Assembly (NCBI GenBank): GCA_026981635.1
Contig: JALSIF010000001.1
Span: 1 to 7,171, forward strand
Origin: JALSIF01 sp026981635 [NCBI: bacterium]
GTDB taxonomy: Bacteria; 4484-113; JALSIF01
Length of the DNA stretch: 7,171 nt
Direction: 5' to 3'
This document shows positions 4,145 through 7,171 of the stretch, one piece after another. Within the stretch, counting starts at the first letter, position 1. The number at the start of each line of letters is the position of its first letter. Made by a program: the position numbers and the translations under genes. The notes beneath the pieces are model-generated. The model made no database searches, was not told where the DNA came from, and saw nothing but the letters and a program-made list of their open reading frames with translations.

Positions 4145-5206
4145 CTAGCCCTCCCCGGTTTCATCAAACAGGCCAGGTTCCCCGCCGATTGACGGAGGAG
4201 GGGGGAGGCCTAGCAGCTCAAAGGCCCGGCGGGTGGCCACCCGGCCGCGGGGGGTACGCTTGATGAAGCCCATCTGGATGAGGTAGGGCTCGTAGACCTC
4301 GCTCAGGGTGTCGCGTTCCTCGCCCAGGGCGGCGGCCAGGGTGTCCAGGCCCACCGGCCCGCCCTCAAACTTCTCCACGATGGTCTCCAGGATGCGGCGG
4401 TCCATCCGGTCAAGGCCGTGCTCGTCCACCCCGGCCAGGGTGAGGGCGCGGTCCACATCCTCCTCCTCCGCCTGGGGCTTGCCCTCCACCTGAACCCAGT
4501 CGCGCACTCGCTTGAGCAGGCGGATGGCGATGCGGGGCGTGCCCCGACCGCGCCGGGCCAGGGCTTCCACCGCCTGGTCGCTGATGGCAAGCTCCAGCAC
4601 CCGGGCGGCCCGGCGGATGATCACCGCCAGCTCCTCCGGAGTGTAGGGGGAGAAGTGGAAGGTGTGGCCGAAGCGGGAGCGCATGGGCCCGGTGAGCAGT
4701 CCGCTTCGGGTGGTGGCCCCGATGAGGGTGAAGGGCTCAAGCTCAAGGCGCACCGTGCGGGCCCCCGGCCCCTGGCCGATGACCACGTCCACCCGAAAGT
4801 CCTCCATGGCCGGGTAAAGGGTCTCCTCCACCGGCCGGGAGAGGCGGTGGACCTCGTCAATGAAGAGCACATCCCCCCGCTCCAGGGAGGTGAGGATGGA
4901 AACCAGGTCGCCGGTCCGCTCCAGCACCGGCCCGCTGGTGGCGATGAGCCGGCTGCCCAGCTCCTCAGCGATGACATAGGCCAGGGTGGTCTTGCCCAGT
5001 CCGGGGGGACCGGCAAGCAGAATATGCTCCAGCGGCTCGCTCCGCGCCCGGGCCGCCTTGAGCATCACCCCAAGCTGGCGCACCAGGTCGGCCTTGATCC
5101 TGCCGCCGGCGGAAAACTCCTCCAGAGTGCGGGGTCTTAGCTCTGCCGGAGCATAAATATCCGCCGGCTGGGGCTCGGAGCCTATCAGGCGGCCTTCGCC
5201 TTCCAT
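4145..5206 (-). CDS. ruvB: Holliday junction branch-migration helicase RuvB (353 aa)
   Basis: RuvB is the AAA+ motor that, with RuvA, drives branch migration of Holliday junctions in recombinational repair. Visible in order are Walker A GPPGLGKTT (66-74), Walker B DVLFIDEVHR (112-121), the YPAMEDFRVDVVIGQGPGAR stretch (131-150) leading into the RuvA-contacting hairpin, sensor 1 GATTRSG (163-169), the arginine-finger segment RSRFG (176-180), sensor 2 GTPRIA (222-227), and the C-terminal DNA-binding winged helix with GGPVGLDTLAAALGEE (282-297) and TPRGRVAT (318-325). Two conserved spots differ: the IGQ after the RPRTLEEF segment is replaced by SAGG (32-35), and the usual Asn after GTPRIA is Ile228. 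The ATG at 5206 is the only start, since a TAG stop lies in frame at 5221-5219. No Shine-Dalgarno is visible, and a candidate -10 box only about 10 bases away suggests a leaderless message. RuvA and RuvC are not next to it. Confidence 0.96.
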   Translation of the reverse strand: MEGEGRLIGSEPQPADIYAPAELRPRTLEEFSAGGRIKADLVRQLGVMLKAARARSEPLEHILLAGPPGLGKTTLAYVIAEELGSRLIATSGPVLERTGDLVSILTSLERGDVLFIDEVHRLSRPVEETLYPAMEDFRVDVVIGQGPGARTVRLELEPFTLIGATTRSGLLTGPMRSRFGHTFHFSPYTPEELAVIIRRAARVLELAISDQAVEALARRGRGTPRIAIRLLKRVRDWVQVEGKPQAEEEDVDRALTLAGVDEHGLDRMDRRILETIVEKFEGGPVGLDTLAAALGEERDTLSEVYEPYLIQMGFIKRTPRGRVATRRAFELLGLPPPPSIGGEPGLFDETGEG

Positions 5207-5861: not shown

Positions 5862-6075
5862 GGCGGGAAAGGGCTCACCGAAAGAGGGGAAACCAGCCGG
5901 GAAAAGCTCAGACAAAGGGCTGGGAGATGACGACATCAGGCAAAGCCCCAGCGCACAGAGAAGGGGTCTGGCGAGGGAAAAAAAATAAACCCGCCCCCGG
6001 AGGGGCGGGACGGGATGAATGAGAGCGAACCCACCTAAGTATACCCCAAATGGGCCCAAAGTGTTTACACCGGCC
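5862..6075. other. Noncoding gap between convergent genes
   Basis: The gap holds the minus-strand terminator at 5978-6009 and otherwise little that can be named. The part near 6040-6070 has small palindromes, GTATAC at 6040-6045, TGGGCCCA at 6051-6058 and GTGTTTACAC at 6061-6070, of unknown meaning. No rightward terminator for the PEBP gene is obvious. Base composition is that of the GC-rich chromosome. Confidence 0.5.
5978..6009 (-). terminator. Rho-independent terminator of the leftward csx1-type gene
   Basis: CCCGCCCC (5990-5997) and GGGGCGGG (6002-6009) form a perfect 8-bp stem with the 4-base loop CGGA. On the minus strand the stem is followed by TTTATTTTTTTT (5989-5978), the classical T-run. 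Read rightward there is no T-run, so it terminates leftward transcription, that is, the gene ending at 6076. It lies about 67 bases past that stop codon. Confidence 0.85.
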
Positions 6076-6096
6076 CTAGTAGGGGGGTCCTAGGGC
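6073..6096. repeat. 7-bp inverted repeat at the GC/AT boundary
   Basis: GCCCTAG at 6073-6079 and CTAGGGC at 6090-6096 are perfect inverted copies around a 10-base spacer containing six G. The pair covers the stop codon and last codons of the csx1-type gene and lies exactly where composition changes. It could be a recombination scar, a hairpin at the transcript end, or chance. Confidence 0.4.
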
Positions 6097-7171
6097 TTCA
6101 AATTCTTCTAATAACTTTTTCAGATCATTTATATAATTTAATCTAGATTTATATATCTTCTTGATTTTATCTTCGCAGTCCGGATTCATGAAAGCATGTG
6201 AAATACAATTTCTTTTATCTCTAATTTTATCTGTTAACTGAGCAGCAAGTGCAAGATTATCATCTTTATATTCTTTATTTATAATCTTTCTTACCAGTTC
6301 GTTCGTTTTTTCTCTTTCATATCTATCAAGAACATATTCTGAATGTCTAAATCTATTCTCAATAATCCAACTAATCACTCCTTCCCTTAATTGAGTAAAG
6401 AACGCGGATAATCGCCTATTCTCTAGCGCCTGGCGAGCTAATTCCTTGTGATAAGTATAGTATGTTAACGGATTAGAAGATATATTGTCTGTAGATTCTT
6501 TAAGTCTTGAGATTATTCTATTAAATGCATGAGCAAAATACCCATAATCAGGATGATTACTCATAATTTCACTTACTGACTTGTCAAGTGAATTGTATAT
6601 AGTATTTATATCTTTTCGAAGCTTTACTGTGTCTGATAATAATAAGATATTTGAATATATTTCTAGACTCCTCTTTATCTGATAGAATGGATTTCGTCTC
6701 CTTATTTGATTACTTAATGAGGTTAATATAGTCTCAATGTTCTCACTTATACCAGAGTTAATTAGCTCTCTCACCGAGTAAGCAAGTTGACTAGCAAGAA
6801 TAAGGTTGCTGATATCGATAATATCGGCATAATTGCTGTTTGTATATCTGCTTTCCATAACATAGAATATCTTGGTTAGATTTTCTAATTTATCCATACT
6901 TACCAAAATGAAAAATATTGTATTTATCAGTAGTACTGGATGTATTCTAAAGCTGTGGGTAATATCAAGATGAATCTCTATATTATAGTTATCAGAGAAT
7001 AGACGAATGATCAATTTTGAGATTGTATTTATCATTTCATTTACTTCTTGATTATTTGCACAGGTTGGAACAGTAATAAACTCTAACTTATTTTCAACAT
7101 AGTTATCAATCACACCGAGATGGCTATTGACTTTAAAATGACCATGTAGATGAGGTAGGCTTTTCCGCTTT
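6076..7171 (-). CDS. csx1: CARF-HEPN ribonuclease, Csx1/DxTHG family, 5' end beyond the window (partial)
   Basis: Relatives are accessory RNases of type III CRISPR systems: a CARF domain binds cyclic oligoadenylate made by Cas10 and switches on a HEPN RNase that cuts RNA in the cytoplasm. Counting from the GTG at 7113, the marks are ITVPTCANN (13-21), then HLDITHSFRIHPVLL (48-62), the DxTHG motif with Ser for Gly; RRLSAFFTQLREGVISWIIE (233-252); and the HEPN site KIRDKRNCISHAF (296-308), with Arg301 and His306 fitting R-x4-H. The frame is open from 7113 to 7171 without a stop and adds residues such as SLPHLHGHFKVNSHLG. The GTG has no ribosome site, and relatives have roughly 100 more residues before DxTHG, so the GTG is probably an internal Val and the gene begins outside. 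Base composition is far more AT-rich than the rest, suggesting transfer. The last residues (LGPPY) are encoded in GC-rich sequence. A CARF-HEPN protein outside CRISPR is the main alternative. Confidence 0.82.
   Translation of the reverse strand, partial: KRKSLPHLHGHFKVNSHLGVIDNYVENKLEFITVPTCANNQEVNEMINTISKLIIRLFSDNYNIEIHLDITHSFRIHPVLLINTIFFILVSMDKLENLTKIFYVMESRYTNSNYADIIDISNLILASQLAYSVRELINSGISENIETILTSLSNQIRRRNPFYQIKRSLEIYSNILLLSDTVKLRKDINTIYNSLDKSVSEIMSNHPDYGYFAHAFNRIISRLKESTDNISSNPLTYYTYHKELARQALENRRLSAFFTQLREGVISWIIENRFRHSEYVLDRYEREKTNELVRKIINKEYKDDNLALAAQLTDKIRDKRNCISHAFMNPDCEDKIKKIYKSRLNYINDLKKLLEEFEALGPPY

What the first reader, a model, noticed from the sequence alone, without database searches (positions are those of the whole stretch)
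6076..7171. Csx1-type CARF-HEPN RNase, hidden as a truncated hypothetical
The AT-rich gene combines a DxTHG-like motif (DITHSFR) with a HEPN catalytic motif (RNCISH) in the order and spacing of type III CRISPR accessory RNases. It is the only defence-type gene in the window and points to a type III locus just beyond the right edge.
Basis: partly seen in the sequence, partly recalled or inferred. Interest (0 to 1): 0.75.

Follow-up and report, generated by a model that had tools for sequence, protein, structure and literature searches.

The report
Foreign-looking Csx1 CRISPR RNase gene
A bacterial contig ends inside a gene for Csx1, a known kind of RNA-cutting enzyme that helps CRISPR systems fight viruses; the gene is ordinary of its kind, apart from DNA so AT-rich that it looks recently imported or wrongly joined on.

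Summary
The minus-strand frame 7170-6076, open to the contig edge, encodes a CARF-HEPN protein of the Csx1 family. PADLOC Csx1/Csm6 E 1.1e-28 over residues 27-357 of 364; each half matches alone; the reversed protein matches nothing. In DITHSFR and RNCISH the residues D, H, F, R and R, N, H are invariant in 9 of 9 aligned proteins. An alignment-guided model aligns best with Marinitoga Csx1-Crn2 (Z 17.5) and then Sulfolobus Csx1 (Z 13.6). The CRISPR link is supported for the genome: a Cas10/Csm1 fragment, cas6, a CARF gene, cas1, cas2 and a repeat array lie on other contigs. "Just beyond the right edge" cannot be tested: the window is the whole contig, and no RAMP gene was found in the 85%-complete genome. 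GC3 is 26% against 64-89% in 12 other genes of the genome, cas genes included; 11 of 11 homologues match the GC of their surroundings. So the gene is either recently acquired or a chimeric contig end. New member of a known kind; low interest.

The parts
6076..7170 (-). csx1 gene, 5'-truncated by the contig end; 364 codons plus stop present, roughly 40-80 residues missing (estimate from where profile matches begin)
   Evidence: frame open to the edge; matches begin at residue 17-27 but at position 60-95 of the best profiles; full-length homologues carry an LG-Y N-terminal strand that is absent here
6700..7170 (-). CARF (Rossmann-like cOA-binding) domain, N-terminal part missing
   Evidence: PADLOC CARF-HEPN E 2e-14 for this part alone; model elements E64-69, H78-91, E98-105, E116-119
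6946..6966 (-). DITHSFR, the DxTHG-type CARF motif (residues 69-75)
   Evidence: D69, H72, F74, R75 invariant in 9 of 9 aligned proteins; aligned to DLTHGLR of Marinitoga Csx1-Crn2
6079..6600 (-). helical linker part plus HEPN RNase domain
   Evidence: PADLOC CARF-HEPN E 5.5e-11 for this part alone; all-helical, aligned with CARF-truncated Csx1-Crn2 8y7f_B, Z 17.6 over 225 residues (model 123-364)
6196..6213 (-). RNCISH, HEPN R-x4-H catalytic motif (residues 320-325)
   Evidence: R320, N321, H325 invariant in 9 of 9; aligned to RNSVAH of Marinitoga Csx1-Crn2
5990..6009 (-). intrinsic-terminator-like hairpin followed by a T run, about 65 bases downstream of the csx1 stop
   Evidence: 8 G-C pairs, tail TTTATTTTTT; 6 sites found in the region against 1.9 expected; -20.3 kcal/mol, z -2.97, 0 of 200 shuffles as good
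6073..6100 (.). sharp composition junction: GC-rich flank to AT-rich gene near 6098, with a 7-base inverted repeat (6073-6079 / 6090-6096) at the edge; the last codons (GPPY, stop) lie in the GC-rich side
   Evidence: GC per 40 bases falls from 0.60 (6061-6100) to 0.15 (6101-6140)

Best explanation
It is a Csx1-family effector of type III CRISPR immunity. When a type III complex meets target RNA, Cas10 makes cyclic oligoadenylate, most likely cA4. The ring binds between two CARF domains of a Csx1 dimer around the DITHSFR motif, the change is passed through the helical linker, and the paired HEPN domains (R320, H325) then cut single-stranded RNA without much choice, slowing virus and host. Shown here: family, domains, motif residues, model fold, type III genes near most of the relatives examined, and type III genes elsewhere in this genome. 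Inferred: dimer, the kind of activator, RNase activity, and that it answers to this genome's own Cas10. The confidence given is for this identity and mode of action; that the gene was acquired recently from an AT-rich donor, rather than misjoined, I put at about 0.55.
For: PADLOC Csx1/Csm6 1.1e-28; both halves match alone, reversed control none. Profile of 9 proteins against PDB sequences: Marinitoga chains 1.4e-34 over 10-408 of 414, S. islandicus Csx1 0.0011; this profile rests mainly on the 8 homologues. Alignment-guided AF2 model pLDDT 72, pTM 0.66; 8y6z Z 17.5 over 320 residues, 8y7g_A (cA4-bound) Z 16.5 over 321, 6qzt_A Z 13.6 over 311. Of 8 homologous loci, 6 carry Csm/Cmr RAMP genes in the same locus; 8 of 8 genomes have RAMPs. 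Thermus homologues lie between csm5 and cas2 or beside cmr6. Own genome: Cas10/Csm1 190.8 bits over cut-off 170, cas6, cas1, cas2 and 6 repeat copies. Marinitoga piezophila Csx1-Crn2 is a cA4-activated RNase; its HEPN variant H402A and CARF variant H129W have no cA4-activated RNase activity (PMC7293037, passages read).
Against: No RAMP gene found in the genome, and the Cas10 fragment ends before the region where the cyclase motif would lie (position recalled), so a working signalling system is not shown. The N-terminal part of CARF is unseen. Scores are below the cut-offs of TIGR02221 and DxTHG. The protein is only 17-24% identical to the 8 aligned homologues and sits on a long branch (4.0 changes per column). 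Composition does not match the genome or its cas genes.
Confidence: 0.92

Rival explanations
1. On origin: the protein is a real Csx1, but it does not belong to this genome. The AT-rich end of the contig was joined to the GC-rich part during metagenome assembly, so the gene comes from an unrelated AT-rich microbe in the same sample.
For: GC3 26% against 64-89% in 12 other genes compared, cas genes included; sharp switch near 6098 next to a 7-base inverted repeat; contig end; not found in the other 9 genomes held of the phylum; 11 of 11 homologues have gene GC within 0.052 of their locus GC, the gene itself counted in the locus.
Against: A terminator-like hairpin in csx1 orientation, in GC-rich host-like sequence, lies about 65 bases past the stop, as expected for a resident minus-strand gene, though such consensus matches are no proof. 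Recent horizontal transfer explains the composition equally well; that type III effector genes are modular is established knowledge, not tested here.
Confidence: 0.4
2. A cA6-activated Csm6 rather than a cA4-activated Csx1.
For: Csm6 and Csx1 share the CARF-HEPN plan; the best PADLOC model bears both names; Csm6 chains appear in the fold lists (E. italicus Csm6 Z 10.2, S. thermophilus Csm6' Z 10.0).
Against: The best structures are Marinitoga Csx1-Crn2 and S. islandicus Csx1 with higher Z (16.5-17.6 and 13.6), both described as cA4-activated (PMC7293037, passages). PMC11229360 defines Csx1 as cA4- and Csm6 as cA6-activated (passages read).
Confidence: 0.07
3. A CARF-HEPN protein used outside CRISPR, or a decayed copy without function.
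For: No RAMP gene found in the genome; foreign composition.
Against: Catalytic and ligand motif residues intact and the frame open for 364 codons; the genome has a Cas10 fragment, cas6, cas1, cas2 and an array.
Confidence: 0.08

Closest known systems
Marinitoga Csx1-Crn2 (PDB 8y6z, 8y7g; biochemistry in PMC7293037), Csx1 part
   Same: CARF with DxTHG-type motif, helical linker, C-terminal HEPN R-x4-H; fold aligned over 320 residues, Z 17.5
   Different: No Crn2 ring-nuclease domain here: the frame stops after HEPN; 17% identity
Sulfolobus islandicus Csx1 (PDB 6qzt; depositors' name 'CRISPR-associated (Cas) DxTHG family')
   Same: Same domain order and overall fold, Z 13.6 over 311 residues
   Different: 10% identity in the structural alignment; chain of 454 residues
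TIGR02221 / csx2 proteins of Thermomicrobium and Thermus plasmids (L010-L012)
   Same: Motif columns aligned and invariant; two of the three lie in a csm or cmr gene block, the third about 7 kb from a cas10
   Different: 18-21% identity; TIGR02221 score of the window protein is below the curated cut-off
Csx1 of Clostridium sp. Cult1 and Clostridium ultunense (L021, L024)
   Same: Share DITHSFR exactly; AT-rich genes and nearest rows in the tree, without support; Csm3 in the locus of both
   Different: 23-24% identity; about 120 residues of extra C-terminal sequence

Membership tests
Csx1 (CARF-HEPN effector of type III CRISPR) | N-terminal CARF domain | tested here: met
   N-terminal 157 aa alone: PADLOC CARF-HEPN 2e-14; alternating strands and helices in the model; N-terminal strand lost at the contig edge
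Csx1 (CARF-HEPN effector of type III CRISPR) | C-terminal HEPN domain with R-x4-6-H | tested here: met
   RNCISH; R, N and H invariant in 9 of 9; C-terminal part alone 5.5e-11; 8y7f_B Z 17.6
Csx1 (CARF-HEPN effector of type III CRISPR) | Association with type III genes, own locus | tested here: inconclusive
   Contig ends; Cas10/Csm1 fragment elsewhere in the genome; RAMPs not found
Csx1 (CARF-HEPN effector of type III CRISPR) | Association with type III genes, relatives | tested here: met
   Csm/Cmr RAMP genes in 6 of 8 homologous loci; Thermus loci
Csx1 (CARF-HEPN effector of type III CRISPR) | Activation by cA4 and RNase activity | not testable with these tools
   Needs protein
NCBIfam TIGR02221 (cas_TM1812 / csx2) | Score above curated cut-off 76.25 | tested here: not met
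   23.5 bits; the protein is truncated, which lowers the score
NCBIfam TIGR02549 (CRISPR_DxTHG) | Score above curated cut-off 21 | tested here: not met
   18.4 bits, E 0.0016; the motif has S in place of G
Csx1-Crn2 fusion | C-terminal Crn2 ring-nuclease domain | tested here: not met
   The frame ends right after HEPN

The most novel reading that the evidence does not exclude
A very diverged stand-alone Csx1 was recently taken up from an AT-rich donor into a GC-rich bacterium as a single effector gene, away from the resident type III-A genes, and works in trans on the host's Cas10 signal: a case of effector exchange without exchange of the CRISPR complex.
Probability: 0.25. Interest if true: 0.35.

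Novelty: new member of a known kind. Interest (0 to 1): 0.17.

Why it matters
Csx1 is a well-studied type III effector, so the finding mainly corrects an annotation: Pfam, and NCBIfam at its cut-offs, leave this protein unnamed. It also shows that this small phylum (10 genomes held) includes a member with type III-A signature genes. If the gene is native, its composition would make it a clean example of recent transfer of one effector gene.

Tried and rejected
Single-sequence AlphaFold model: pLDDT 39, not used. Single-protein scans of genome contigs and viral contigs, and an alignment scan of viral contigs: no relative confirmed; the alignment scan of genome contigs gave 8. phmmer of the single protein against PDB sequences: 3 hits, best E 0.68, to THEMIS constructs, taken as chance. 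Cmr2 search of the genome: none. A second Cas10 hit on C283 (17.8 bits, below cut-off) was dropped; the contig was fetched but not analysed. Search of 391 genomes of the class of G016 at E<=1e-10: 0 hits, but G016, whose genome holds a relative, did not ring either, so it says nothing. Contig end in another contig: none. DNA similarity of 5862-7171 to plasmids and phages: none. Direct repeats of 20 nt or more in the window: only diverged pairs and triples 0.3-3.7 kb apart, no CRISPR array. tRNA in the window: none. Rfam at gathering scores on the window and contigs C77, C14, C270: only a TPP riboswitch on C14. The plasmid matches of the single protein had E 1e-3 to 0.6 and were used as leads to be aligned, not as proof; two phage matches (E 0.3) were dropped. 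Rows with Z under 7 in the fold list, among them toxin chains and designed proteins, were taken as common helical arrangements and not followed. The structure paper of 8y6z was not found in the library (one search returned only PMC7293037). PMC4012209 (passages) was looked at for the motif and not used. The tree places the window on a very long branch with no supported partner, so no donor is named.

Full report
Observation. The window equals contig C1 of a draft genome of 1.745 Mb in 317 contigs, 85% complete. At its right end an AT-rich frame runs on the minus strand from 7170 to 6076, 364 codons, open to the edge; a GTG at 7113 could be read as a start, but full-length homologues have more sequence before this point. 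The other genes of the contig are an FAD-linked oxidase, a DUF4139 protein, RuvB and a phosphatidylethanolamine-binding-protein family gene; the 303-aa frame at 88-999 has no family above its Pfam cut-off.

Identity. Pfam gives nothing above cut-off. NCBIfam gives TIGR02221 (E 4.6e-5) and CRISPR_DxTHG (E 0.0016), both below their cut-offs. PADLOC gives Csx1/Csm6 at 1.1e-28 over residues 27-357; 17 of the 18 families listed are Csx1 or CARF-HEPN groups. As a control, the reversed protein gave no family at E<=1, while the N-terminal and C-terminal parts each matched CARF-HEPN models alone at 2e-14 and 5.5e-11. Aligned with 8 homologues from genome contigs (17-24% identity), the residues D69, H72, F74, R75 and R320, N321, H325 are invariant in 9 of 9 rows. 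The S in DITHS is not a defect: two clostridial homologues have the same DITHSFR, and two others have DVTHAFR or DITHAFR.

Structure. Without an alignment the model was useless (pLDDT 39). With the 9-row alignment it reached pLDDT 72 and pTM 0.66; residues 1-27 stayed under 50. Foldseek put Marinitoga Csx1-Crn2 first (E 3.8e-8, TM 0.57 by query) and S. islandicus Csx1 seventh (4.4e-5, TM 0.49). VIA-align gave 8y7f_B Z 17.6 (225 residues, rmsd 3.3), 8y6z Z 17.5 (320, rmsd 4.5), 8y7g_A with cA4 Z 16.5 (321, rmsd 3.6), 6qzt_A Z 13.6 (311, rmsd 4.2), 8y75_A Z 12.1 (218, rmsd 3.6), a Sulfolobus protein 2q00_A Z 11.2 (106 residues of the C-terminal part), then Csm6 chains from 10.2 down to 6.7. The Marinitoga and Sulfolobus Csx1 chains stand clearly above the unrelated helical rows, which start at Z 6.9. 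The profile of the alignment matched the Marinitoga chains at 1.4e-34, with DLTHGLR and RNSVAH on the two motifs. By my count the motif histidines of that chain are 129 and 406. The paper on the M. piezophila protein reports that H129W has no cA4-activated RNase activity and that H402A in HEPN is inactive (PMC7293037, passages read). The first number coincides with mine, the second is off by four, so I equate the motifs, not the numbers.

Truncation. The best profile matches begin at residue 17-27 of the window protein but at position 60-95 of the profiles, so roughly 40-80 residues are missing. Full-length homologues have an N-terminal strand with an LG-Y motif there.

Surroundings in relatives. 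PF03787 RAMP genes occur in 8 of 8 genomes of the homologues. Fifteen of these RAMP stretches could be placed in 6 of the 8 loci by coordinates; 10 of the 15 were scanned, at least one for each of the 6 loci, and 10 of 10 scored best as Csm3, Csm5 or Cmr4 (one of them, in L025, nearly as well as Cmr1). For L019 and L020 the RAMPs lie beyond the length of the locus's contig, so on others. In L023 the RAMPs are on the opposite strand. In Thermus brockianus the homologue lies between csm5 and cas2, in T. thermophilus beside cmr6, and in Thermomicrobium about 7 kb from a cas10 with no RAMP listed in the stretch, whose gene table may be incomplete.

The genome. Cas10/Csm1 is present: 190.8 bits against a cut-off of 170 on C14. 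The frame (486 aa) runs off the contig end and has an HD-type sequence, HDLGK, near its start (motif name recalled). C77 holds cas6 (1.3e-42 in PADLOC; no NCBIfam match), a 225-aa CARF protein (best 2.5e-7), cas1 (1e-82) and cas2 (2.8e-26) in a row, and ends in one copy of a repeat. Five more copies of its 27-base core, 79-83 bases apart, start contig C270, with a degenerate last copy near 444; that C77 and C270 adjoin is inferred. Cmr2 was not found and no RAMP was found in this genome; the missing csm genes may lie in the gap after C14. Of 10 genomes of the phylum, 2 have RAMPs, 3 have Cas1 including this one, and none of the other 9 has this Csx1 by protein or profile.

Is it native? The csx1 gene has GC3 26%, against 64-89% in 12 other genes compared: four of the window, five cas/CARF genes (64-81%) and three of C270 that I named by eye. 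For 11 of 11 homologues the gene's GC lies within 0.052 of that of the whole locus, so low GC is not a trait of the family. GC falls from 0.60 (6061-6100) to 0.15 (6101-6140), and the last codons (GPPY, stop) lie in the GC-rich side. A 7-base inverted repeat sits at the edge (6073-6079 and 6090-6096), which chance may give; the scan lists a weak terminator-like site on the plus strand at the same place, 6084-6099. A terminator-like hairpin in the direction of csx1 lies at 6009-5990 and suits a resident minus-strand gene. Recent transfer and a chimeric contig both fit; reads are needed. No donor can be named: the tree branch is 4.0 long and unsupported.

Mechanism. By family, the most likely action is cA4-triggered, largely unspecific RNA cleavage by a dimer, fed by Cas10. 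PMC11229360 (passages read) defines Csx1 as CARF-HEPN proteins that bind cA4 as dimers. Family, domains, motifs and fold are shown here; activator, dimer and activity are inferred.

Verdict. A correct and well-read observation of an ordinary kind of gene: a new, very diverged member of Csx1, probably foreign or misjoined in this contig.

Noticed in passing
L026 (G000:C77) 2095-2772: A 225-aa CARF protein between cas6 and cas1, with weak matches to several CARF groups and to TIGR02710 (below cut-off); no second domain showed in PADLOC or NCBIfam, so it may be a ring nuclease or regulator.
   Followed up: partly
L026 (G000:C77) end and L040 (G000:C270) about 33-470: A CRISPR array with a repeat of 36 bases by eye is split over two contigs; the last copy on C270 is degenerate.
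   Followed up: partly
L032 (G000:C14) 4282-4390: A TPP riboswitch on the minus strand, just upstream of a frame at 4238-2673 that looks like a permease by eye.
   Followed up: no
window 6073-6100: A 7-base inverted repeat with a G-run loop at the GC switch, overlapping the csx1 stop codon.
   Followed up: partly
L021 4586-6295 and L024 3932-5641: Clostridial Csx1 proteins carry about 120 extra C-terminal residues after HEPN (569 aa in all); L019 has a shorter extension too; not identified here.
   Followed up: no
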